A DNA stretch of 38,050 nucleotides from a virus. The notes beneath the pieces are model-generated. The model was not told the DNA's origin. It ran no database searches and worked only from the letters and a program-made list of their open reading frames with translations. The translations under genes and the position numbers were made by a program. The stretch spans positions 1 through 38,050 of the IMG/VR virus record IMGVR_UViG_3300048833_000709. One strand, 5' to 3'. Of this stretch, positions 1 through 33,926 are shown one piece after another (within the stretch, counting starts at the first letter, position 1; every line of letters begins with the position of its first letter).

Positions 1-279
1 TCAGTGGATGGCCGCGTCGGGCGGTCGTCGCTGCCGGCACCGGGGGCAATCGCACGTCGGCGATCCGCCGGTCGCGCCGCGGATGACGTCCCGGAGCGCC
101 ATCGCCACCATCGGCAGCGCCTTTAAGATGTCCCGGCCGTGCCGGCCGTTCGTGTCGCACCGCGCGATCGTGCTGTCGGTCAGGCTCATCACGAGGATGA
201 ACCCGGCGTCCTCGCCTACGGCGTCACGCACCGCCGCCATGGCCGCGGCCATCTTCGCCTCGTCGTCAGCGTCGGACAT
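1..279 (-). CDS. small hypothetical phage protein with C-terminal Cys cluster
   Basis: A 92-residue protein with no family that I recognise. The N-terminal half is acidic and alanine-rich. The C-terminus carries a CDCPRCR cluster that could hold a metal with another ligand, although only three cysteines lie together. The ATG has a GAGGA-type ribosome-binding site just upstream, inside the end of the integrase gene, and the two genes overlap by 14 bases, so it is the last visible gene of the leftward operon. The window edge coincides with its stop codon, so the gene looks complete. The product may be a small regulator or an accessory of the integration module, but nothing in the sequence decides this. 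Confidence 0.6.
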   Translation of the reverse strand: MSDADDEAKMAAAMAAVRDAVGEDAGFILVMSLTDSTIARCDTNGRHGRDILKALPMVAMALRDVIRGATGGSPTCDCPRCRQRRPPDAAIH

Positions 280-1453
280 CGTCGTCCTCCGCGGTCAGCA
301 GGTCGGCCGGCGGGCTGATCGCGGCGACCACGCGGGCGGCGATCGCGTCGTGAGCGGGCATGTACGTCGCCTCGAGCCGCGGGTCGGTGGCGGCCGCGTT
401 GCCGAGCACCTGGCCGACGCTGTCCTTGTCCGCGCCGCCCAGGCGGGCGAGGTGCCCGAAGGTGCGGCGCAGGTCGCGGAACTGCAGGTCGGCCACGCCG
501 GGCTGCTGCTTCGCGGCCGCGGCGCGCAAGGCTGCGAATCGCTTGCGGAACGTGTCGGAGCGCCACGGCGCGCCTTCCGGGCCCAGCAGCATCGGCCCCG
601 GGCCGTCGCCGCGCTCGGCCGCCCAGCGGCGCAGCAGGCCGTCGGCGACCGGGTGCAGAGAGATCCTGCCCCAGTTCTGCTTCTTCGACCGGATCAGCTC
701 CCACCAGCCGGGCTGCGCGAACTCCTCGGGCGCGGCCTTGAGGATGTCGGCCTGGCGCTGCGCGGTCAGGGCGGCCAGCGCGATCGCCGCCGCCATGGCG
801 GTCTCGCGCCGTCGCAGGGCCGTGCGCAGCAGGGCCCCGAGCTCCTCCCAGCTGGCGACCCGGCTGCGCGGCGGCGTCTTGAGGGCGCGTCGGCGCTTGC
901 CGTCGAGGCGCAGGCAGGGGTTCGCGTCCTCGGGGATCCAGCCCAGCTCCTCGGCGTGGCTCAGCAGCAGCGAGAGCTTGCGCACCATCGCCTTCGCCGC
1001 GAAGGCGCCGCCGCCGCGCGTCTGCCACGGCCGCGCGCCGCGCAGCACCTCGGAGCGCCAGGCGCGCACCGCCGCCTTGTCGAGCGCGACGACGGGCTTG
1101 TCGCCGAAGTCGCGCTCGATCGCGGCGAAGGCCTTCGCGTAGTCCTCGCGCGTGGCGGGGCGCAGCTCGGCCCAGTGGTCGTCGGCCCGGTAGCTGCGAA
1201 TCAGCGCGGCGACCGTGCGGCCGCCGTCGACGCGGGCGACGCGCGGCGGCGCGCCGTCGCGGACCGCGGCCGCCGCCATGGCGTTCAGCTCCTCGGCCCG
1301 TCGGACGCCGCGGGTGGTGGCGTCGATGTCCTCGGCCTGGAACCCGAGCGGACGCGCGGCCGCCGGCGGCTCCCACCACACGCGCCAGCTGCGGTCGGCG
1401 CGCTGGCGCTGGCGCACGCCGGCGGGCGGCGACTTGAGGGGCGGGCGGCTCAT
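266..1453 (-). CDS. int: tyrosine-family site-specific integrase
   Basis: Phage integrase of 395 residues that would join phage and host attachment sites through a covalent 3'-phosphotyrosine intermediate. The catalytic pocket is readable in the C-terminal half: Arg233 in TAQRQADIL, Lys257/258 in RSKKQNW, the second box FRDLRRT (Arg326 and Arg329, with Arg where many relatives have the first His), Asn352 in LGNA where His is usual, and the nucleophile Tyr364 in EATYMP. The N-terminal part (about 75-185) fits a SAM-like core-binding domain. The ATG at 1453 is chosen because it forms an ATGA overlap with the upstream stop; the open frame runs further upstream but with out-of-frame-like composition. 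It is the next-to-last gene of the left operon, below an excisionase-like gene, the usual arrangement for coordinated excision. Confidence 0.93.
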   Translation of the reverse strand: MSRPPLKSPPAGVRQRQRADRSWRVWWEPPAAARPLGFQAEDIDATTRGVRRAEELNAMAAAAVRDGAPPRVARVDGGRTVAALIRSYRADDHWAELRPATREDYAKAFAAIERDFGDKPVVALDKAAVRAWRSEVLRGARPWQTRGGGAFAAKAMVRKLSLLLSHAEELGWIPEDANPCLRLDGKRRRALKTPPRSRVASWEELGALLRTALRRRETAMAAAIALAALTAQRQADILKAAPEEFAQPGWWELIRSKKQNWGRISLHPVADGLLRRWAAERGDGPGPMLLGPEGAPWRSDTFRKRFAALRAAAAKQQPGVADLQFRDLRRTFGHLARLGGADKDSVGQVLGNAAATDPRLEATYMPAHDAIAARVVAAISPPADLLTAEDDDVRR

Positions 1454-1749
1454 GCCGTGGCCCCTGCGATCACCGCTCGCTTCCGCGCGGCGATGATCCA
1501 GTTGGTGATCGCGCCCTCGGCGCCGCCGGTGCTGGTCGCCGCGACGCCGCCGATGCGGCAGCGCCAGCGCCACGACGCGTCGGCCGTCAGCGCGCCGCCG
1601 GCCTGCTCGACCGCGCCCTGCAGGAAGGCGTTGCGGCGATCGCGCTGCGCGCGGATGTCGAGGTGGTGCGCCTCGTCATGGCGCTGCACGTGCGGCGCCT
1701 TCAGCCGCGCGGCCTCCAGCGCGTCGGCGATCGCGAGAAGGTCGCTCAT
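1450..1749 (-). CDS. hypothetical protein in int operon
   Basis: A 99-residue protein of unknown function, rich in Ala, Arg and His, with no membrane segment. The central part (KAPHVQRHDEAHHLDIRAQRDRR) looks charged and helical. The C-terminal part has WRWRCRIGG followed by a short Ala/Gly/Thr-rich stretch. The start at 1749 is set by an ATGA overlap with the gene above; its stop in turn overlaps the integrase start in the same way. Translation is therefore probably coupled to integrase production, which suggests but does not prove a role in integration or excision. No paralogue is seen in the window. Confidence 0.65.
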   Translation of the reverse strand: MSDLLAIADALEAARLKAPHVQRHDEAHHLDIRAQRDRRNAFLQGAVEQAGGALTADASWRWRCRIGGVAATSTGGAEGAITNWIIAARKRAVIAGATA

Positions 1750-14093: not shown

Positions 14094-14324
14094 TGCGGTT
14101 GGCGTTTTCGGGCGCGTCCCGGTGATCGTCTGTCACCGCGACGCACCCCCCCGGCCTTCGCGCGCGCGGGTCGGCCGGCGCCGCGATGCCGGGGGGGCGG
14201 TCCGCGCCGTTGACGTTCCGCCCCCCCTTCCGACCCCGTGCAGGCCCGGGCCGAAGGCGGGCGGTCGGGTCGGGGGAAAACGCGAAACCGGGGCGGCTCG
14301 ACCGGGGTGGGGGGAGGCGCGGCC

Positions 14325-16043
14325 GTGAGCGGGTTCTGGGCGGGGGCCGACGACTGGGCGGCGCGGGCGGGCGAGGCGGCGCTCGATCTCGACGCGACGG
14401 GGCCCGAGGCCGCCGCGCCGCTGTTCACCGAGCTCTGGTCCCCGCCCGGGCCGGTCGCCGAGGCCTTCTACTGGTCCGACGACACCCTGGCGGCCTGCCG
14501 CGGTCCGGTGGGCTCTGGCAAGACCCGCACGCACATGGCGAGCCGGCTGCGCCGCGCGCAGAACGCGCCGGCCAGCGTGGTCGACGGCCGGCGGCGCTAC
14601 AAGGTCACCTTCGCGCGGGCCACGTACCGGCAGCTCTGGCAGACCACCATCCCGTCCTGGTTCGAGGTGATGCCCCGGCGCTGGGGAAAGTGGGCGGGCG
14701 GCCGGGGCGACCCCGTGACCCACGCGGTCGAGCTCGAGGACGAGTTCGGCGTGATCGAGTTCACGGCCGAGTTCCTGGCGTTCGGCGAGGCGCCGTCGGA
14801 AATCACCGCGAACATGCGCGGCGTGCAGACCACGGACCTGAGTCTCGAGGAGGCCGACACCATCGACGCCACGGTGATCGCGGTCGGCATCGGCCGCATC
14901 GACCGCTACCCGGCCAAGGAGCATTTCCGGGGGCTGCCGCCGGAGATCGCCAGCTACGGCCAGCTGAGCGCCACCTACAACGCCTGCGAGGAGGAGAACC
15001 CGATCGTCGGGCTGTTCGAGCCCGAGCTGGCGCCGGACGCGCGGCTGACCGTGATGCGCCAGCGCCTCGAGGCCGAGCAGGCCGAGGCCTTCGCGCGAGG
15101 CGAGCTGGCCAAGCCCTTCCGCATCGCGATGTTCCGCCAGCCGGGCGGGCGCGACGCGGGCGCGGAGAACCTGCAGAACCTGGCCAAGGGCTACTACGCC
15201 GCGCAGGTGGCCACGATGACGGCCATGGGGCGCAGCGACGAGATCACCCGGCTGGTGGACAACCGCCTGGGCTTCGTGCGCGCGGGCGACCCGGTCTTCG
15301 CCAACGAGTTCAACCCGCGCATCCACGTGGCCGACGCGCCCTTCGAGCCCGAGCCGGGCGAGCGGCTGATCCTGGGCTTCGACCAGGGCTTCTTCGGCGC
15401 GGGGCTGGTGCTGACCTTCCGCCGGCCGTTCCAGTGGCGGGTTCACGCCGAGTTCTGCGCGCCCGACCGGCTGTTCGCCGAGGAGTTCGCGGCGCGGTTC
15501 CGGGCGGAGATCCTCGAGGAGCTGTTCCCCCGGCACACGGCCGCCGAGGCCTGGGGCGACATGGCGGGCGACAAGGAGACCGCCGAGGCCACGGAGAACC
15601 TGACGTGGAACCACATCGTCGGGACCGCGCTCGACGTCGGGATCGCCGGGCAGACCGAGGGCAACAACCGCATCGCGCCGCGCCTGCGGGCGATCCGCGC
15701 CGCGCTCGACTGGCTGCACCTGGGGACGCCGGGGCTGCTGATCCACCCGCGCTGCCGCGGGCTGATCCGGGGCTTCGCCGCGCGCTACGTCTGGGGCGAG
15801 GAGCTGGACCAGGCGGGCAACAAGACGACGAAGCCCAAGAAGCGCGGCGTGCGCGAGGCCGACCTGATGGACGCGCTGGCGCACGCGCTTCTGAGCCGGG
15901 CGACCCCGCAGGGGCTGACGCCGGTCAGCACGGCGGCCGGAAAGGCGGCCGCGCGGGCCGAATCCCTGCGCGGGCACAATGGCGGGCCGCCGCTGGAGAC
16001 GCCGCCGGCCGGGCGGTGGGACCCGTTCGCCCTGTGGAATTGA
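14325..16043 (+). CDS. terL: terminase large subunit
   Basis: A 572-residue packaging motor and nuclease. The ATPase has a Walker A loop GPVGSGKT (Lys66), with the following RRLRRAQ and KVTFARATYRQLWQTTIP as the strand and Q motif. The nuclease domain is readable from the RNase-H-like Asp353 in LGFDQGF, the Asp412 region (WGDMAGD) and the late acidic pair Asp513/Asp516 in EADLMDAL. The start GTG at 14325 follows GGGGAGG by eight bases; longer frames upstream look spurious. The 231 GC-rich bases before it contain runs of C and no gene. The protein would cut concatemers and pump DNA into the prohead through the portal at 16919. Confidence 0.92.
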   Translation: MSGFWAGADDWAARAGEAALDLDATGPEAAAPLFTELWSPPGPVAEAFYWSDDTLAACRGPVGSGKTRTHMASRLRRAQNAPASVVDGRRRYKVTFARATYRQLWQTTIPSWFEVMPRRWGKWAGGRGDPVTHAVELEDEFGVIEFTAEFLAFGEAPSEITANMRGVQTTDLSLEEADTIDATVIAVGIGRIDRYPAKEHFRGLPPEIASYGQLSATYNACEEENPIVGLFEPELAPDARLTVMRQRLEAEQAEAFARGELAKPFRIAMFRQPGGRDAGAENLQNLAKGYYAAQVATMTAMGRSDEITRLVDNRLGFVRAGDPVFANEFNPRIHVADAPFEPEPGERLILGFDQGFFGAGLVLTFRRPFQWRVHAEFCAPDRLFAEEFAARFRAEILEELFPRHTAAEAWGDMAGDKETAEATENLTWNHIVGTALDVGIAGQTEGNNRIAPRLRAIRAALDWLHLGTPGLLIHPRCRGLIRGFAARYVWGEELDQAGNKTTKPKKRGVREADLMDALAHALLSRATPQGLTPVSTAAGKAAARAESLRGHNGGPPLETPPAGRWDPFALWN

Positions 16044-25206: not shown

Positions 25207-25671
25207 ATGTGCAACCTGATGACGGCCGCCACGATCGGCGCGACGGCGCTTTCCGCCGGCGGCCAGATCGTCGGCGGCATCCAGAGCCGCAGCATCGCCG
25301 CCGCCAACGCGCGCGCCCTTCGGGCGCAGGCGACGCGCGAGGCGGAGCTGGGCGCCGTGCGCGAAAGCCAGGTGCGCCGCGAGTACCGCCAGAAGGCCGG
25401 GCTGCAGCGCGCGCAGATCGCGGCGTCGGGCGTCACCCTCGACAGCCTGACGTCGCTCGACCTGGGCGCGGACCTTGCGACGCAGGGCTTTCTCGACGCG
25501 CAGTCCGCGCGCCTCGACAGCCAGGGCCGCCAGACGCAGCTGCGCAACTCGGCCCGGCTGGCGCGGGCCGAGGGCGCGGCCGACCTGATGCGCGGCGTCA
25601 CGGGCGCCGCCGCCGGCGTGCTGACCGCCGCGCCGAAGCTGTGGCCGGGGCTGGCCGGAGACGGCCCATGA
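25207..25671 (+). CDS. internal virion protein, T7 gp14-like
   Basis: A 154-residue protein starting with MCNLMTAATIGATALSAGGQIVGG, a Cys-containing hydrophobic segment as in gp14-type ejection proteins that insert in the outer membrane, then an Ala/Arg-rich helical part (REAELGAVRESQVRREY, and ARLDSQGRQTQLRNSARLARAEGAADL). It starts right after gp12-like and overlaps gp15-like by ATGA. The order 14-15-16 matches the T7 internal core set, although sequences have diverged. Confidence 0.72.
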   Translation: MCNLMTAATIGATALSAGGQIVGGIQSRSIAAANARALRAQATREAELGAVRESQVRREYRQKAGLQRAQIAASGVTLDSLTSLDLGADLATQGFLDAQSARLDSQGRQTQLRNSARLARAEGAADLMRGVTGAAAGVLTAAPKLWPGLAGDGP

Positions 25672-27719
25672 TCATCGTCCCGAACGCTCGCATCGCGCCG
25701 GTCGAGCAGGCGCAGCCGCAGGCCGATCCGCGCAGGTTCAACGTGGGCGACGCGGCCGCGACCATCGGCGCGGCGGCGGCCGACGCCTTCAGCCGCATCG
25801 ACGATCAGAACGTGGCGGCGGAGCTGCGCGAGGCGCGCGTCGCCGCCGCCGAGCGCCTCGGGGCCGAGCGGCTGGGCTTCGACCAGGCCGCCGACTGGAC
25901 CGGCCTGTCGGCGCGGTGGGAGGAGACGTCCTCGGCCATCGGCCGCCAGATCGGCGAAGGGCTGTCGCCGCGGGCGCGCGCGGCCTTCGACCTGTCGTTC
26001 CGCGAGCTGCGCAGCCCGCACACGCTGGCGCTGCAGGAGCGCGAGTTCGTCCTGCGCCGCGGGCATGAGCGCGCGCGGCTGACCACCGGCCTCGAGCGGC
26101 TGACCGCCGCCGCGGCCGGCGCCGCCGATCCGGGCGCCGCCGCCGCCGTGGCCGACCAGACCGCCGACACCATCGAGGAGGCGCGCGCCGCCGGCTGGGT
26201 CAGCGCCGAGGAGGCCGCGGAGCTGCTGAGCCGCGCCGGCGCGCGCACCGCCAACGCGCTGGCGCTGCGGCTGATGCGCGAGGACCCGAACGCGCTCGAC
26301 GCCCGGCTGGCGGCCGGCGACTTCGACGCGCTGGGGCCCGAGACGGTCGAGCGCTACCGCTCGAGCGCGCAGGCGGCCGTCGCGCAGGACGCCGAGCGCG
26401 CCGCCCAGCGCCAGCAGCAGGCGCAGCGCGAGGCGCAGCTGACGCTGGCCCGCGACGTGGAGGCGGCGGTCGGGCAGCTGGAGGCGGGCCTTACGCCCGA
26501 GGACCTCGAGCCGCTGCTGACGCGGGCGCAGGGCACGCCGGAGGGCCGCAGGCTCGAAACCGCCGTCGCCGCGACGCGCGCGGTCGACGGCGTGTTCGGG
26601 GTGATGAGCCCCGCGCGGCAGGCCGAGGCGCTGCAGACCTTCCGGTCGCGCCCGTCGCAGCCCGGAGACGAGGAGGTGGTCGCCGCGATGGAGCGGCTGC
26701 ACGCCGCGACCATCGAGAGCGTCGCCGCCGACCCGCTGGGCCACGTGGCGCGGCGCGGGATCGTCGACGTGGCGCCGGTCGACCTGTCGGACCCGGCGTC
26801 GGTCGCCGCGCGCGTCGCCACGGCCGAGGCGGTGGCGACCGGCTGGGCGCAGGGCCAGCCGGTGCGCTACTTCACCGACGACGAGCGCCGCCAGTACGCG
26901 GCGCGGCTGCGCGACGCCGGTCCCGAGGACCAGCTGGCGCTGGCGGTCGCGATGGTCGACGGCTTCGGCGGTCGTGCGCCGGACGCGCTGGGCGAGCTGG
27001 GGCTCGACAATCCCGCCTTCGGCTACGCGGGCAGCCTGGTGGCGCTGACCGGCGACGACGCGGCGGCGCGGTCGATTCTGGCCGGCCAGCGGTTGCTCGA
27101 CCAGAAGCAGGGCGCCAAGCCCAAGGCGGCGCTGCGCGACGGCGTGATCGCCGAGCTGGTCGCGGATGTGACCGCGGGGTCGGACGAGATGCGGCGGCTG
27201 GCGTTGCTGGCGGCCGACGCGCATTTCGCCGACGTCGGCGCGCGCGTCGATCCGACCGACGAGGAGGCCGTGCGCGAGGCCTACGCCGACAGCGTGCAGG
27301 CGGCCTTCGGCGGCGTGCGCCGCGGCGGGCGGCTGTTCGGGGGCGTGCAGCCGGTGAACGATCGTCCGACGATCCTGCCGGCCAGCCTGACCGGCGACGC
27401 GGCCGAGCGGATGCTGGGCGCGGCCACGGCGGCGCAGCTGGCGGCGGCGTCCCTGGGCGGCGCGCCGACGTGGGGCGACGGCCGCCCCGTCCGTTCGGCG
27501 AGCGACCTTGTGCTGATCTACGAGGGCGGGGGATCGTATTTGCTGGCGCGGGAAACCAGCGACGGGCTCGCCGTTCTGTCCGACGCGACGGCGCCAGACG
27601 GTCGTTTCCGGCTAGATCTTGCACGTTTGGCGCGCGCCGTCGGCGTCCAGTCGACCCTCTACGATCGTACCGGCCGCGCCGTCATGGACGCCGCCGCGAC
27701 GCTGGGGCCCGCGCCATGA
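25668..27719 (+). CDS. internal virion protein, T7 gp15-like
   Basis: A 683-residue protein, mostly helical, with long Ala/Arg/Glu stretches (REARVAAAERLGAERLGFDQAADW, QQQAQREAQLTLARDVEAAVGQLE). Size and place between gp14-like and the transglycosylase-bearing gp16-like gene support an ejected core protein that forms part of the periplasmic conduit. No enzymatic motif seen. The C-terminal region (SASDLVLIYEGGGSYLLARE) is beta-like. Starts at ATGA with gp14-like, ends at ATGA with the polyvalent ejection gene. Confidence 0.7.
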   Translation: MIIVPNARIAPVEQAQPQADPRRFNVGDAAATIGAAAADAFSRIDDQNVAAELREARVAAAERLGAERLGFDQAADWTGLSARWEETSSAIGRQIGEGLSPRARAAFDLSFRELRSPHTLALQEREFVLRRGHERARLTTGLERLTAAAAGAADPGAAAAVADQTADTIEEARAAGWVSAEEAAELLSRAGARTANALALRLMREDPNALDARLAAGDFDALGPETVERYRSSAQAAVAQDAERAAQRQQQAQREAQLTLARDVEAAVGQLEAGLTPEDLEPLLTRAQGTPEGRRLETAVAATRAVDGVFGVMSPARQAEALQTFRSRPSQPGDEEVVAAMERLHAATIESVAADPLGHVARRGIVDVAPVDLSDPASVAARVATAEAVATGWAQGQPVRYFTDDERRQYAARLRDAGPEDQLALAVAMVDGFGGRAPDALGELGLDNPAFGYAGSLVALTGDDAAARSILAGQRLLDQKQGAKPKAALRDGVIAELVADVTAGSDEMRRLALLAADAHFADVGARVDPTDEEAVREAYADSVQAAFGGVRRGGRLFGGVQPVNDRPTILPASLTGDAAERMLGAATAAQLAAASLGGAPTWGDGRPVRSASDLVLIYEGGGSYLLARETSDGLAVLSDATAPDGRFRLDLARLARAVGVQSTLYDRTGRAVMDAAATLGPAP

Positions 27720-30700
27720 GCGGCCTTTTCGCTCGCGATGACGGTGTCGCCGCCCGGTATCAGGTGGCGGACGGGCCTCGGCCCGGCGGTGGAGAGTTGT
27801 TTGCGGCGAACTTCACCGACGCGCAGATTCGCGGGGACGCCAACGCGCAGACCTATCGCCGCCGAAAGGAATTGCTCGAAGCTCTGGCTGATCGGCTTGG
27901 CCCTGAAGGCTCGAGGTATCGACAAGCGTTCGACCGATCTGCCGTGCTTCCCGAGCGGGATGTCGAAGCGCTGATGACCGCGGTGCGATCCGCTGCGGAA
28001 CGCGATCCATCCAAGTGGGCGGATGCGCCGCTGACGCGACAGGCCGCCTTCGACAAGGTCGCCAAGCAGCTGCGCGCGGAGATCGACGCCGCGCAGCTGG
28101 TCATGGGGCGGCAAACGGGGCTGGCCGACGCTGCCGTGTCATTTGCGGGTCAGATCGCGGGGACGGCTGCGGACTTGCCAAACGTCATCATGTCGCTCCC
28201 GGGCTTCGCCGCGAAGTCTTTCGGGCGCATGGTCCTCTACGAAGCCGGCCTGGGAGCCGGTGCAGAAGCCATCGCGCTGCCCCGTATCGCTGCGGTGGAA
28301 AAACAGCTGGGGCTGGAGCCCACCGATCCCTTCATGCAGATCGGAGCCGGCGCGGTCTTCGGCGCGGCGCTTCCTATAGCGGGGCGCGGCGCAAGGGTCG
28401 CGTGGCGTGGCGCAGCCGCGGTCTCGAACTCTGATCTGCTGGCGGCCGCCCGCGCCCGCGTCGCGCGGCTGCGGCCCGTGGAGCGCGCGGCCGCGGCGCG
28501 GCTGGAGGACGACGCCGCCGCCCGCGCCAACGCGCCGGGCGAGGATCAGGACGCCGACGTCGCGCGGCTCGACCGCGCGGCCGAGGCGGCGGCGCAGGGG
28601 CGGCCAGAGCTGATCCCGGAGACGGCCCCGCGGGCGGACGCGCTGGCGCCGGGCGCGCCGCGGCGCGTGTCGCTGGAAGATCGCATCATCGGCGTCGAGA
28701 GCGGGGGGCGGGCGGACGCGGCCAACCCGAACTCGAGCGCGCTGGGGGCGGGGCAGTTCATCGCCGGCACGTGGCTGGAGATGCTGCGCAAGCACCGGCC
28801 CGAGCTGCTGGAGGGGCGCTCCGAGGCCGAGGCGCTGGCGCTGCGCACCGACCCCGATCTGAGCCGCCAGATGACCGCCGCCTACGCGCGCGACAACCGC
28901 GCCTGGCTGGGCGAGCAGGGCCTGCCGATCCACGACGGGGCGGTCTATCTGGCGCACTTCGCCGGGCCGGCGGGCGCGGCCCGCGCGCTGCGCGCCGCGG
29001 CCGACGCGCCGATCCGCGACGTGATGTCGGATGCGGAAATCGCGGCCAACCGGGCGATCCGGTTCAACGGCAAGAGCTTCGAGCAGTTCACCGCCGGCGA
29101 CCTGATCGGCTGGGCGAAGTCGAAGATGGGGATCGCCGACGCGGCCATCGGCGATCTGCCCGCGGCGACGCGCGCGCAGTATCCCGCCGACGAGGTTCTG
29201 ACCGACGCGGGCGCCTTCCAGTACAAGAGCGGGGGCGACGCCGAGGGCGTGACCGCGCGGCTGCTGTTCGAGCGCGAGTGGGACCCGGTCGCGGGCAGCG
29301 GCCTGACGTTCTTCGAGGCGCTGGACGGGCGCGTCTTCGTCGCCGACGGCCACCAGCGGTCTGGCCTCGCGCGCCGGCTGATGGCCGCTGGCCACGCGCC
29401 GATCACGCTGGACGGCTTCGTCTATCGCGAGGCGGACGGGTGGACGCGCCCGCAGGTCCGCGCCATGGCGGCGCTGACGAACATCCGCGCGCTGACCGGC
29501 ACCGCCACCGACGCCGCCAAGGTGATGCGCGACTTCCCCGAACTGGGCGAGCGCATCGCCCGCGGCCCGGAGTTCGTGCGCCGCGCCGACGCGCTGGCGC
29601 GGCTGGCCCCCGAGACATTCGAGGCCGTCGTCAACGAGGTGATCCCCGAGAACCTCGGCGCCGTCATCGGCCGCGTCGCGCCGGGCGACGAGCGGCTGCA
29701 GCGCGCCATCCTGAAGGCGTTCCGCCAGCTGGAGCCGGCCAACGAGCTGGAGGCCGACCTGATGGCGCGCGACGTCCGGCGCCTCGGCCTCGAGCGCGAG
29801 ACCGAGGGCGCGCAGATGTCGCTGTTCGGCGACGACTTCGACTTCGGGGCCAGCCCGATCGGCGAGCGCGCCCGGGTGCTCGACCAGACCGTCAAGGAGC
29901 TGAAGCGCGACAAGGCCGTCTTCGAGCGGCTGACGCGCGAGGCCGACCGCATCGAGCAGGAGGGCAACCGCCTTGCGCGCACCCAGAACGAACGCCGCGC
30001 CGCCCAGCAGCAGCGCATCCTCGAGGCCGTCCTCATCGCGTCCGACGAGCCCGGACCCGTCCGCGACGCTCTCGACGCCGCCGCCCGCACCGCCCGCGCC
30101 AAGTCCGTCGCCGCCGGCGCCCGCGAGTTCGCCGAGGCTGTCCGAGCGGGAATTGACAGCGGTGTTGTCGGCCGTGCGTTCGATCGAGCTGCAGTCCGCC
30201 GCGCTGAAGCTCCGCTTGGCGATGGCCCGGGCGAAGGCGCCGCCCGCGCCGCCCTCGGCGACCCCGAGCCCCCGGCGCTGAGCGAGGCGGGCGAGATCCC
30301 GCCCGGCCTGTTCGACGACCCGGCCGGACCCGAGGCGCGCGCTGCGACGGTGGCGCTGGAGGAGGACCTGCTGGCGCAGGCCGCGCCGGCGCCCGCCCGA
30401 GAGGCCGCGACGGGATTGCGCGACGTTGTCCGCAAGGCCGGTGAGCCCGGAGACCACCCGCGCGCCTTCGTGCGCGTCGGCGCGGTGACGGACGGCTTCG
30501 TGCGCGTGGTGCAGGACGAGGCGGGCATCGACCTGAGCGGCTACCAGCATTCGGTCGACGTGTACGGCGTGCGGCACATCCTGTCGGAGCACGGCGACCC
30601 GGCCGCCGAGCGCAGCCGCGGCCAGGTCGCGATCACCGAAGCCGACATCGCTGAAATTCCGCAGACGCTGGCGGCGGCGACCCACGCCGTCGTCGGGTTG

Positions 30701-31195
30701 CAGAGCCGTCGCGGCCAGCCGGTTATCGGACTGATCGCGCGGCGAGGCGATGGATCGATCGTCTATGTCGAGGAGGTGCGCACGAAGCGCCGCACCCTCG
30801 CTGCGATTACGATGTGGAAGTACCCCGCAGAGGCCAATGCCGAGAGCGTCCTCTCAGCCCTGCGCCGAAACGTCCGCGACGGCCGCGGGGATGGTGTGAA
30901 GGTAGTCGAACTCAGCCCTGACGCCAAGCCGATCGACGCGCCGGACGCCCCCGACGAATTCGCCGCGTCGCGCGACGCGCTCGAGCGCGACCTGGTCGGC
31001 GAAGACGCGGTCAGCGGCAAGTACGGCCGGCTGCTGTTCGACGCTCTGGACGAGCCGACGCGCGCGCAGCCGGTCAACCTGTCCGAGGCTGAGGGCGGCG
31101 ATCTGCGGGCGCTGGGCGAGATCGTGCAGGAGCTCGACGACGAGCTGCGCGCGCTCGACGCCATGGACGCCTGCCGGATCGGGGGCGAGCGATGA
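27716..31195 (+). CDS. polyvalent ejection protein: SLT, ParB-like and PBECR nuclease domains
   Basis: A 1159-residue virion ejection protein. Residues 1-230 are an N-terminal region with hydrophobic stretches (VSFAGQIAGTAADL, GAGAVFGAALPIAG). Residues about 322-430 are an SLT transglycosylase domain: GVESGG with catalytic Glu328, then NPNSSALGAGQF. Residues about 490-610 are a ParB-like domain of polyvalent type (EWDP, VADGHQRSGLA, ALTNIRALTGTATDAAKVM). A coiled coil follows (about 720-770). Residues about 945-1045 read VRHILSEHGD, GQVAITEADIAEIPQ, YVEEVRTKRRTLAAITMWKY, which match the phage barnase/EndoU/ColE5-RelE-like (PBECR) nuclease pattern: conserved His954, Arg and late Thr1032. GC is lower near both ends, a sign of recombination. 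Confidence 0.8.
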   Translation: MSGLFARDDGVAARYQVADGPRPGGGELFAANFTDAQIRGDANAQTYRRRKELLEALADRLGPEGSRYRQAFDRSAVLPERDVEALMTAVRSAAERDPSKWADAPLTRQAAFDKVAKQLRAEIDAAQLVMGRQTGLADAAVSFAGQIAGTAADLPNVIMSLPGFAAKSFGRMVLYEAGLGAGAEAIALPRIAAVEKQLGLEPTDPFMQIGAGAVFGAALPIAGRGARVAWRGAAAVSNSDLLAAARARVARLRPVERAAAARLEDDAAARANAPGEDQDADVARLDRAAEAAAQGRPELIPETAPRADALAPGAPRRVSLEDRIIGVESGGRADAANPNSSALGAGQFIAGTWLEMLRKHRPELLEGRSEAEALALRTDPDLSRQMTAAYARDNRAWLGEQGLPIHDGAVYLAHFAGPAGAARALRAAADAPIRDVMSDAEIAANRAIRFNGKSFEQFTAGDLIGWAKSKMGIADAAIGDLPAATRAQYPADEVLTDAGAFQYKSGGDAEGVTARLLFEREWDPVAGSGLTFFEALDGRVFVADGHQRSGLARRLMAAGHAPITLDGFVYREADGWTRPQVRAMAALTNIRALTGTATDAAKVMRDFPELGERIARGPEFVRRADALARLAPETFEAVVNEVIPENLGAVIGRVAPGDERLQRAILKAFRQLEPANELEADLMARDVRRLGLERETEGAQMSLFGDDFDFGASPIGERARVLDQTVKELKRDKAVFERLTREADRIEQEGNRLARTQNERRAAQQQRILEAVLIASDEPGPVRDALDAAARTARAKSVAAGAREFAEAVRAGIDSGVVGRAFDRAAVRRAEAPLGDGPGEGAARAALGDPEPPALSEAGEIPPGLFDDPAGPEARAATVALEEDLLAQAAPAPAREAATGLRDVVRKAGEPGDHPRAFVRVGAVTDGFVRVVQDEAGIDLSGYQHSVDVYGVRHILSEHGDPAAERSRGQVAITEADIAEIPQTLAAATHAVVGLQSRRGQPVIGLIARRGDGSIVYVEEVRTKRRTLAAITMWKYPAEANAESVLSALRRNVRDGRGDGVKVVELSPDAKPIDAPDAPDEFAASRDALERDLVGEDAVSGKYGRLLFDALDEPTRAQPVNLSEAEGGDLRALGEIVQELDDELRALDAMDACRIGGER

Positions 31196-31443
31196 CGGCC
31201 GTCTTCCGCAGCCTGTTCGACATGACGCCCGTCTGGGTCGAGGCGCAGCCCGAGCGGCGCGATGAGCTGGCCGTCCACCTGCGCCAGGGCGCGGCGGTGA
31301 AGGTGGTCTGGTTCTTCTTCGGCGTGCGGGACATCGACCGGCTGGCGCTGGCCGAGGCCCCTGTCGGCCTGCCGATCGCGGTGCAGCTGCCGCTGTTCGT
31401 CGCGCGCGACGCGGGCTGGGCTTTTCAGGAGGTCAGCCCATGA
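31192..31443 (+). CDS. small protein between nuclease-bearing protein and gp16-like
   Basis: An 83-residue protein, ATGA-coupled at both ends. FRSLFDMTPVWVEAQPERRDELAVHLRQGAAVKVVWFFFGVRDIDRL is a compact alpha/beta layout; no family recognised. The acidic and aromatic content and the location right after a gene for a nuclease-like domain make an immunity-type or chaperone role possible, but this is inference. It could equally be a small structural protein. Confidence 0.55.
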   Translation: MTAVFRSLFDMTPVWVEAQPERRDELAVHLRQGAAVKVVWFFFGVRDIDRLALAEAPVGLPIAVQLPLFVARDAGWAFQEVSP

Positions 31444-33926
31444 GCCTGTTCGACTGCATCGAGCGCGCGATCGGCGGCGGCGAGATGCCGGTCGAGCCCG
31501 GCCGCCGGCTGCAGGAGCTGGTGCGCCGGCTGGAGGCCGAGTACGCCCACATGGGGCCGGACGCCGCGGCGGCGCAGGCGGCGGCCGACGCGAAGAAGGT
31601 GTTCCGCGAGGAGACGCTGGCGCGCCGGCGCGCGGTGCTGGGGACGATCAAGGCCCAACGCGACATCGCGCGGGCCATGGCCGAGTACCGCGACATCACC
31701 GGCGGCCCGGACCGCAGCGGGGCGCTGCCGGCGCTGCTCGAGTACGACCAGGCGGCGACCTTCATGAGCGTGCGCGGCGTGCGCGAGAGCCTGCGCGGGC
31801 GCTATCACCGGATCGTCGCCGACGTGCTGGTCAAGCATCAGAAGGACATGACCGGCGCGATCCGCAACCGCGCCGATCTGCCGGTGCTGGTGCGCGAGCT
31901 GATGGGCGAGAACACCGGGAACGCGAACGCGCGCGAGCTGGCCGAGGCCGTCACCCGCGCGTTCGAGACCGCGCGGCGCGACTTCAACGCCGCGGGCGGG
32001 CACATCGGCAAGCTGCAGGACTTCGGCCTGCCGCACCGGCATGACGCGCAGCGCATCCGGCGCCGGGGTTTCGACGCCTGGGCGGACGAGATCATGCCCC
32101 GGCTGGACTGGGAGCGGATCCCCGATCACCGCAGCGGCCGGTCCATGACGGCGTCCAGCCAGCCGCGGCGGCGCGAGTTCCTGCGCGAGATCTACGACAC
32201 CATCACCACCTACGGCTGGACCAAGCGCGAGCCGTCCGGGCAGCGCGTCGGACAGGCGCTCTACAACCGGCGGGCCGATCACCGCGTGCTGCACTTCCGC
32301 AGCGCTGACGACTGGCTGGCCTACGACGAGCGGTTCGGGACCGGCGACCCGTTCACCTCGATCATGTCGCATCTCGACCACATGGCGCTCGACACCGCGA
32401 TGATGCGCGTGCTGGGGCCGAACCCGCGCGCGGGCCTCGAGTTCGCAATCCAGACGCTGGAGAAGGCCGCGGCGACGGACCCCTGGGCGAAGGACGCCGC
32501 CGACCGCGTGCGGTCCCGCGCGCAGATCGCGCGCACCATGATGGGCCACCTGACGGGCGAGGTGAACCGCGGCGGCGATCCGTTCTGGGCGAACTTCATG
32601 GCCGGGACGCGCAACTACATCGTGGCCTCCCGGCTGGGCGGCGCGTTCCTGTCGTCGCTGGGCGACGTGCAGTTCGGCGGGCAGGCGGCGCGGCACGTCG
32701 GCATGGGCGTCTTCGCGCCGATGCAGCGGCAGATGCGCCTGATGGCCAGCCAGGGCGCGCGGCAGGAGGCGCTGACGCTGGGCGTTGTCGCCGACGCGGC
32801 CGCGGACGCCGGCGTGATGATGCAGCGTCTGCTGGGCGGCGAGATCACCGGACCGGAGGTGACGCGCCGGCTGGCCGACTTCACCCTGCGCATGAGCTTC
32901 CTGACCCAGTGGACCGAGGTAGGGCGGCACGCCTTCCAGCTCGAGATGTTCGCCCAGTTCGCCGCGCAGGCGTCGAAGTCGTGGGACCATCTCGACGAGC
33001 CGTTCCGCCGCCTGGTGCTGCAGGCGCGCGGATTCAGCCCGGCCGACTGGGACGCGATCCGCGCGACGCCGCTGCACCGCACGCCTGACGGCGGGCTGTT
33101 CCTGCTGCCCGACGACATCCGCTTCCGCGATGACATCGACCCCGAGTACGCCGACGGGCTGTCGCTGCGGCTGGGCGCCGTCGTGCAGGAGCAGACCGAG
33201 TTCGCCGTGCCGAGCTACAGCCTGCGCGGCCGGGCCAACATCGTCGGCGAGACGCGCGCTGGCAGCTTCGTCGGCGAACTCGCGCGGTCCGGCGCGGCCT
33301 TCAAGGGCTTCGCCGTCACCCTGTTCGTGAACAACATCCGCCGCGTCGCGCTGGCCGACGGCCGCGATCCGCGATGGGTGCGCATCATCGCCTTCGGCGC
33401 CCTGACCACCTTCGCCGGCGCGGTCGCCGTGAACATGAAGGAAATCGGCAAGGGCCGCGATCCGCAGGACATGACGACGCCCGAGTTCTGGGGCCGCGCC
33501 ATGGCGCAGGGCGGCGGCCTGGGGATCTTCGGCGACTTCATCGGCATGTCGGCGCAGAACCGCTTCGGCGACAGCTTCGGAACCACGCTGGCTGGGCCTG
33601 CCGTGGGCCTCGCCAACGACGTCGGCCGGCTGACCATCGGCAACCTCTCGCAGTTCGTGCAGGGCGAGGACACCGACTTCGGCCGCGACCTGACGCGCTT
33701 CCTGCGCTTCAACGCGCCCGGCGCGAACGTCTGGTGGTGGAGCCAGGCGTATCAGCGCGGCGTGATGGACTACGTCCAGCGCGCGCTCGACCCCGAGGCC
33801 GAGGAGGCCTGGCGCCGCGCCGAGCGGACCCGCCTGCGCGACTTCGGCAACCCCGCCTACTGGCCTCCGGGCGCGCCGCTGCCGCGCCGGGCGCCCGACC
33901 TTTCCGCAGCGGCAGGAGGTTCCTGA
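31440..33926 (+). CDS. large internal virion protein (gp16-like, non-enzymatic)
   Basis: An 828-residue protein. The N-terminal part is helical (VFREETLARRRAVLGTIKAQRDIARAM), the centre has HRHDAQRIRRRGFDAWADEIMPRLD, FRSADDWLAYDERFGTGDPFTSIMSHLDHMALDTAMM and NFMAGTRNYIVASRLGGAFLSSLGD, and the C-terminus has a hydrophobic segment (IIAFGALTTFAGAVAVNM) and GVMDYVQRALDPEAEEAWRRAERTRLRDFGNP. This order is typical of the C-terminal part of long internal core proteins in podoviruses. The transglycosylase domain that T7 gp16 carries sits instead in the previous gene, so the gp16 role appears split over two proteins. Confidence 0.72.
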   Translation: MSLFDCIERAIGGGEMPVEPGRRLQELVRRLEAEYAHMGPDAAAAQAAADAKKVFREETLARRRAVLGTIKAQRDIARAMAEYRDITGGPDRSGALPALLEYDQAATFMSVRGVRESLRGRYHRIVADVLVKHQKDMTGAIRNRADLPVLVRELMGENTGNANARELAEAVTRAFETARRDFNAAGGHIGKLQDFGLPHRHDAQRIRRRGFDAWADEIMPRLDWERIPDHRSGRSMTASSQPRRREFLREIYDTITTYGWTKREPSGQRVGQALYNRRADHRVLHFRSADDWLAYDERFGTGDPFTSIMSHLDHMALDTAMMRVLGPNPRAGLEFAIQTLEKAAATDPWAKDAADRVRSRAQIARTMMGHLTGEVNRGGDPFWANFMAGTRNYIVASRLGGAFLSSLGDVQFGGQAARHVGMGVFAPMQRQMRLMASQGARQEALTLGVVADAAADAGVMMQRLLGGEITGPEVTRRLADFTLRMSFLTQWTEVGRHAFQLEMFAQFAAQASKSWDHLDEPFRRLVLQARGFSPADWDAIRATPLHRTPDGGLFLLPDDIRFRDDIDPEYADGLSLRLGAVVQEQTEFAVPSYSLRGRANIVGETRAGSFVGELARSGAAFKGFAVTLFVNNIRRVALADGRDPRWVRIIAFGALTTFAGAVAVNMKEIGKGRDPQDMTTPEFWGRAMAQGGGLGIFGDFIGMSAQNRFGDSFGTTLAGPAVGLANDVGRLTIGNLSQFVQGEDTDFGRDLTRFLRFNAPGANVWWWSQAYQRGVMDYVQRALDPEAEEAWRRAERTRLRDFGNPAYWPPGAPLPRRAPDLSAAAGGS

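What the first reader, a model, noticed from the sequence alone, without database searches (positions are those of the whole stretch)
27716..31195. Ejected polyvalent protein that carries a possible RNA-targeting toxin domain
One gene combines an SLT domain (Glu328), a ParB-like polyvalent domain (VADGHQRSGLA) and a C-terminal PBECR-type domain (His954, EH, late T.W). Since T7 gp16-like proteins are injected, this would deliver a host-attacking or anti-defence nuclease with the DNA. Polyvalent proteins are known; its exact use here, a SLT-ParB-PBECR chain in a temperate podovirus ejection protein, looks worth testing. Domain assignment is by pattern, not by search.
Basis: partly seen in the sequence, partly recalled or inferred. 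Interest (0 to 1): 0.82.

Follow-up and report, generated by a model that had tools for sequence, protein, structure and literature searches.

The report
Phage ejection protein with swappable toxin
A short-tailed temperate phage carries, in a protein probably injected with its DNA, a predicted RNA-cutting domain, and in about a hundred related phage proteins that same spot is empty or holds other toxin-like enzymes, so the protein looks like a delivery scaffold with an exchangeable payload.

Summary
The 1159-aa gene (27716-31195) has an SLT lysozyme domain (Glu328), a ParB-fold core with an invariant DGHQR motif, and a C-terminal PBECR3 domain (Pfam E=1.2e-13) that keeps His954 and Thr1032. 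An AlphaFold model of PBECR3 (pLDDT 87) matches RelE/HigB-type toxins at the top of the PDB list, though each match is weak (E 0.02-0.2). The gene sits in a T7-like internal-virion-protein cassette of a phage with an integrase.

The wider result came from comparison. The N-term/ParB/helical core belongs to a family, sampled here as 99 distinct cores, mostly from Alphaproteobacteria and uncultured phages. About a third have nothing after the core. The others carry an insert there: a Tas1-like (p)ppApp-synthetase domain (23), zeta toxin (17), PBECR1 (2), ART-like or others. Most inserts that could be tested precede a conserved C-terminal tail. The window is the only PBECR3 case found. Labels change at least 35 times on the core tree, so payloads are exchanged.

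All domain types were already known in injected polyvalent or MuF proteins. I did not find this scaffold with an exchangeable slot in the literature searched. RNase activity, injection and target are inferred.

The parts
27716..31195 (+). Ejection-type polyvalent protein, 1159 aa (P0001)
   Evidence: ORF, ATGA overlap with upstream gene, domain hits
28079..28615 (+). Conserved N-terminal region with hydrophobic, glycine/alanine-rich stretch (about residues 122-300), matched in 66 ORFs of the loci searched; possible membrane/channel segment (inferred)
   Evidence: profile match
28697..29131 (+). SLT / lytic transglycosylase domain, residues 328-472, catalytic Glu328
   Evidence: phrog_4067; phiKZ gp144 structures E=7e-18
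29183..29635 (+). ParB-fold domain, residues 490-640, with invariant DGHQR motif
   Evidence: 28-sequence alignment; model and ParB/Noc fold hits
29636..30163 (+). Helical part of the conserved core, residues 641-816; together with the end of the ParB domain it spans the HTH region of ParB/Noc in the fold match
   Evidence: model, ~207-column alignments to Noc/ParB
29813..29827 (+). QMSLF loop motif (residues 700-704), resembles a bacterial sliding-clamp binding motif (by eye)
   Evidence: Q..[LM]FG in 41 of 55 relatives; in a lower-confidence loop of the model
30506..30829 (+). PBECR3 (BECR-fold predicted RNase) domain, residues 931-1038, the payload
   Evidence: Pfam PF18812 E=1.2e-13; model pLDDT 87, RelE/HigB fold hits
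30575..30592 (+). His954 to His959 (HILSEH) of the PBECR active-site helix
   Evidence: conserved columns H31/H36
30809..30811 (+). Thr1032, late S/T of the PBECR active site
   Evidence: S/T in nearly all relatives
31067..31183 (+). Candidate conserved C-terminal tail following the payload
   Evidence: weak in this member (E=0.16 at the right place) but significant in 14/14 zeta, 18/22 Tas1-like and 2/2 PBECR1 members
31192..31443 (+). 83-aa orphan gene overlapping the stop of P0001 (ATGA); candidate immunity protein, unproven
   Evidence: coding-type GC3 0.94; no homologue in the loci fetched up to then
25207..25671 (+). gp14-like internal virion protein
   Evidence: phrog_418 E=6e-26
25668..27719 (+). 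gp15-like virion protein
   Evidence: phrog_992 E=2.5e-22; syntenic in relatives
31440..33926 (+). Virion structural protein downstream
   Evidence: phrog_684 E=9e-158
266..1573 (-). Integrase (supports temperate lifestyle)
   Evidence: phrog_1 E=7e-29

Best explanation
The gene encodes an ejection protein of a temperate short-tailed phage that works as a modular delivery scaffold. The N-terminal part and SLT domain help the protein cross membrane and cell wall; the ParB-fold/helical core sits on the entering DNA on the cytoplasmic side; the PBECR3 domain, placed in a slot between this core and the C-terminal end, is carried into the host cytoplasm and cuts RNA at the start of infection, to shut down host functions or a host defence. 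Shown by sequence: domains, catalytic residues, gene order, family with an exchangeable slot. Supported by model: BECR and ParB folds. Inferred: packaging, injection, RNase activity, target.
For: PBECR3 Pfam hit with intact His954/His959/Thr1032 and a confident model whose top fold hits are RelE/HigB-type toxins. SLT. Internal-virion-protein cassette before and after the gene, same order in dozens of relatives. In 99 distinct cores the slot is empty (30) or holds a Tas1-like synthetase (23; profile to Tas1 E=3e-24), zeta toxin (17), PBECR1 (2), ART-like or others; most inserts precede a C-terminal tail shared with payload-free members. The fillings recur as toxins elsewhere and change at least 35 times on the core tree. 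The sister protein, from an Oceaniglobus genome, lacks the payload. Iyer et al. 2017 (PMC5512222) predict PBECRs to be injected RNases.
Against: No virion proteomics or injection assay. PBECR3 fold hits are individually weak (best E=0.017, TM about 0.3-0.4). PBECR3 on this scaffold is a single case. No sequence homology to T7 gp16 was shown. Iyer et al. note that the PBECR of Mu MuF is inactive, so this clade can lose catalysis.
Confidence: 0.62

Rival explanations
1. PBECR3 as a counter-defence RNase: it removes a defence RNA (such as CRISPR RNA or a defence-induced RNA) in the first minutes rather than attacking the host in general.
For: Proposed for PBECRs by Iyer et al. 2017; early delivery and rapid exchange of payloads fit an arms race.
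Against: The other fillings of the slot (zeta toxin, Tas1-like synthetase) are known to act on cell-wall precursors and nucleotide pools, which points to a general hit on the host; no PADLOC hit in this gene or three others tested.
Confidence: 0.22
2. Polymorphic toxin with immunity: the payload harms unprotected recipients and lysogens are protected by a downstream immunity gene, as for MuF toxins.
For: The phage carries an integrase; an 83-aa gene overlaps the stop codon, like the small ORFs after MuF toxin genes in Jamet et al. 2017.
Against: Most relatives with zeta or Tas1-like payloads have no room for a gene before the next virion gene; the 83-aa protein has no homologue in the loci searched; a phage that kills the cell it enters gains little.
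Confidence: 0.12
3. PBECR3 here is a non-catalytic RNA- or protein-binding module with a structural role in the virion.
For: Iyer et al. describe the PBECR of Mu MuF as inactive.
Against: All named active-site residues are kept, and the sister protein and about a third of the family do without any payload, so it is not needed for assembly.
Confidence: 0.15

Closest known systems
Polyvalent proteins (Iyer et al. 2017, PMC5512222), including jhp1044-like Helicobacter proteins with PBECR and DdrB-like ParB
   Same: Large multidomain virion-context protein with lysozyme, ParB and PBECR domains, predicted to be injected
   Different: The ParB core here is not matched by the Pfam ddrB-ParB model or by profile comparison with one ddrB-ParB member; one compact scaffold with fixed order and one exchangeable payload slot; no metallopeptidase hit in Pfam
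MuF polymorphic toxins (Jamet et al. 2017, PMC5576092; Apk2, PMC12226406)
   Same: Conserved phage virion-associated part with short and long forms, the long forms carrying C-terminal toxin domains of the same kinds (nuclease, RelA-like, ART)
   Different: Scaffold is a gp16-position ejection protein, not MuF; payload lies before a conserved tail in most tested members; no gene fits between most payload proteins and the next virion gene
T7 gp16 ejection protein (PMC8954989)
   Same: Third of three consecutive internal virion proteins and carries an SLT domain
   Different: SLT is internal, not N-terminal; ParB-fold core and PBECR3 are additional; no sequence homology shown
ParB/Noc/Spo0J chromosome partition proteins
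   Same: Predicted fold over about 207 columns including the HTH region
   Different: No detectable profile similarity to ten chromosomal ParBs; DGHQR in place of GERRxRA; CTP binding untested

Membership tests
PBECR3 (PF18812) | Pfam match above gathering score | tested here: met
   51.4 bits against 30, E=1.2e-13
PBECR3 (PF18812) | Active-site His in N-terminal helix and late S/T | tested here: met
   His954 in predicted helix 26-36 of the model, Thr1032 in the last long strand
[quoted passage not shown]
   model helices then strands 65-73, 79-87, 90-99, 104-114; RelE/HigB fold hits, each weak
PBECR3 (PF18812) | RNase activity | not testable with these tools
   needs an assay
SLT lytic transglycosylase | Sequence similarity to lytic transglycosylases with catalytic Glu | tested here: met
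   phrog_4067 E=1.2e-22; gp144 structures E=7e-18
DdrB-like ParB (PF18763) | Pfam or profile match | tested here: not met
   no PF18763 hit for the protein or its 28-member ParB alignment; profile comparison with one ddrB-ParB member negative
ParB/Srx-type fold | ParB-like predicted structure | tested here: met
   first 23 PDB hits are ParB/Noc/Spo0J, prob 0.96-1.00, TM-target up to 0.53, best E=1.9e-3
Canonical ParB | Detectable sequence-profile similarity | tested here: not met
   hhalign probability 0.3 per cent against ten chromosomal ParBs
Canonical ParB | CTP binding and hydrolysis | not testable with these tools
   needs an assay
T7-like ejection proteins | Position in gp14-gp15-gp16 gene order | tested here: met
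   phrog_418, phrog_992 upstream, same in relatives
T7-like ejection proteins | Presence in virion and ejection into the cell | not testable with these tools
   needs virion proteomics
MuF polymorphic toxins | MuF domain | tested here: not met
   no PF04233 hit
Polymorphic toxins | Conserved delivery part with diverse toxin domains in one position | tested here: met
Polymorphic toxins | Adjacent immunity gene | tested here: inconclusive
   83-aa orphan gene here; no room for one in most payload-bearing relatives

The most novel reading that the evidence does not exclude
Ejection proteins of this family are DNA-entry machines built on a CTP-dependent ParB-type DNA clamp: the ParB-fold core closes on the entering genome and helps pull or hold it, its QxxLF loop engages the host replication sliding clamp, and an exchangeable effector is delivered from the same polypeptide.
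Probability: 0.12. Interest if true: 0.88.

Novelty: new variant of a known kind. Interest (0 to 1): 0.62.

Why it matters
It suggests that short-tailed phages of Alphaproteobacteria and others use a common ejection protein as a carrier for interchangeable toxin-like enzymes, parallel to MuF toxins but on different hardware. It gives a natural comparison: related scaffolds with no payload, a Tas1-like synthetase, a zeta toxin or a PBECR domain, some in genomes of cultured bacteria. It also places a ParB-fold core in a DNA-ejection protein, a module not mentioned in the ejection-protein review consulted.

Tried and rejected
Search of IMG/VR with the whole protein gave no relative; alignments were needed. 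Pfam's weak acetyltransferase and DUF2064 hits were treated as chance. The PBECR3 profile found no PDB sequence match, so the fold was used. hhalign of the core against chromosomal ParB and ddrB-ParB was negative, so I do not call it a DdrB-ParB or a true ParB. I expected a downstream immunity gene in payload-bearing relatives; the gap survey did not support it. A profile of C-terminal ends did not score this protein's own tail above its shuffles, and the profile from payload-free members gave only E=0.16, so the tail claim rests on the family. PBECR3 was sought and not found in ten genomes bearing the scaffold; no control genome rang, so this is weak. PADLOC gave nothing. Literature searches for this scaffold-payload arrangement found no description; most subscription journals are not covered.

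Full report
1. The observation. The gene at 27716-31195 is a 1159-residue ORF whose start overlaps the stop of the gene before it (ATGA) and whose codon-position GC is typical for the genome. Pfam finds PBECR3 at residues 931-1038, E=1.2e-13, well over the curated cut-off. PHROGs find a transglycosylase at 324-460 and a long match to a protein of unknown function over 457-827.

2. Setting. Upstream are a tail protein (phrog_376), a phrog_418 internal virion protein and a phrog_992 head protein; downstream, after a small gene, a phrog_684 virion structural protein. Further upstream are a head-to-tail connector (Pfam PF12236) and a capsid protein, and on the minus strand an integrase and an antirepressor gene. 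The record is a 38-kb virus contig. The gene order matches the internal virion proteins of T7-like phages (the review PMC8954989 describes gp14, gp15 and gp16 with the transglycosylase in gp16). I did not show sequence homology to gp16.

3. Folds. An AlphaFold model of the PBECR3 region from 12 sequences has pLDDT 87 and the expected helices followed by four strands. The first 18 PDB fold hits are all RelE-, HigB- or other toxin-antitoxin structures, plus HP0892 of Helicobacter pylori (RelE-like, own knowledge), with E between 0.017 and 0.18. Each is weak, but their agreement is not what a random fold would give. The conserved His and Ser/Thr positions hold in relatives. A model of the ParB-helical core from 55 sequences has pLDDT 94; the first 23 PDB hits are Noc, ParB or Spo0J, over about 150-220 columns that include the region of their HTH domain. 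Sequence profiles do not link it to chromosomal ParB or to one ddrB-ParB member, and Pfam ddrB-ParB does not hit. It is therefore ParB by predicted fold, with an invariant D-G-H-R motif in 28 relatives (DGHQR in nearly all).

4. A family with an exchangeable slot. One alignment-based scan of IMG/VR and one of GTDB genomes gave about 130 proteins with the same core, and a further scan added more. In over 60 loci the core protein is followed, nearly without gaps, by the phrog_684-like gene, usually with a gp15-like gene directly before it. After removing close copies, 99 cores remain: 30 have a short tail with no payload; 23 carry a domain whose profile matches P. aeruginosa Tas1 at E=3e-24 and (p)ppGpp synthetases; 17 a zeta-toxin domain (Pfam E down to 1.4e-22); 5 a JAB-like domain judged by eye; 2 PBECR1 above the Pfam cut-off (Aureimonas); 2 ART-like by eye with at most sub-threshold Pfam support; 1 PBECR3 (the window); 19 other or unassigned. 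A profile of the last 50 residues of payload-free members finds the same tail at the C-terminus of 14 of 14 zeta, 18 of 22 Tas1-like and 2 of 2 PBECR1 proteins, so in those the payload sits inside, between core and tail. In the window the tail match is weak (E=0.16) though in the right place.

5. Exchange. On a tree of the 99 cores, payload labels need at least 35 changes where 8 is the minimum for nine labels; zeta and Tas1-like each need at least 6 changes even if only well-supported branches count. The window's sister (53-54% identity, full support) is a payload-free protein in an Oceaniglobus trochenteri genome; the alignment of the two ends at about residue 893, just before the PBECR3 region. 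The SLT position also varies: it is inside this gene in the window and in sphingomonad relatives, and in the upstream gene in some others; the sister has a different, lysozyme-like insert there (by eye). One relative, L193, has N-SLT-ParB-helical-Tas1-like, the same layout as the window with another payload.

6. Mechanism. The simplest account is a delivery scaffold: SLT for the cell wall, ParB-fold core on DNA, payload into the cytoplasm. PBECR domains are predicted RNases (Iyer et al. 2017). Tas1 makes (p)ppApp and zeta toxins phosphorylate cell-wall precursors (established knowledge). That different activities occupy one slot argues for a general early attack on the host, or for a set of answers to different defences; I cannot separate these. 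A MuF-like toxin-immunity logic is less likely because most payload-bearing genes have no gene between them and the next virion gene; the window's own 83-aa gene is the exception worth testing.

7. Known or new. Polyvalent proteins with lysozyme, ParB and PBECR, and MuF toxins with nuclease, RelA-like and ART payloads, are published (PMC5512222, PMC5576092, PMC12226406). I found no account of this ejection-protein scaffold with alternating payloads in the papers searched, which exclude most subscription journals. I rate it a new variant of a known kind.

8. Limits. Everything is from sequence and predicted structure. Sampling by conserved motifs favours close relatives, so the absence of a second PBECR3 example is not strong evidence of rarity. 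ART and JAB assignments are partly by eye. The tree used a quick search without bootstraps. The payload-free class includes a few proteins cut by a contig end.

Noticed in passing
window 29813-29827; relatives in alignment A10: A QxxLFG loop motif (QMSLF here) is kept in 41 of 55 cores and looks like a sliding-clamp binding motif; it lies in a loop of the model.
   Followed up: partly
window 31192-31443: Orphan 83-aa gene overlapping the stop of the polyvalent gene; no homologue in the loci searched; candidate immunity protein.
   Followed up: partly
L015, L024, L034 and others: Zeta-toxin kinase domains with intact P-loop fused to the same ejection protein in phage contigs.
   Followed up: yes
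L010, L013, L018, L111, L115, L193 and others: Tas1-like (p)ppApp-synthetase domains in the same slot, with invariant Asp and Glu columns that look like the synthetase metal-binding residues.
   Followed up: yes
L092 3766-7260 and 7227-12308: An InPase-DarA_N-PBECR3 polyvalent gene lies directly upstream of a ParB-core gene that also carries an N6 methylase domain.
   Followed up: no
L022, L037, L047, L067: The SLT domain sits in the upstream gp15-like gene instead of the ParB-core gene, so the cell-wall hydrolase moves between neighbouring virion genes.
   Followed up: no
window 14238-16043: Large ORF at the usual terminase position with no Pfam or PHROG hit at E<=0.001; reading frame not settled.
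   Followed up: no
[quoted passage not shown] no Pfam hit.
   Followed up: no
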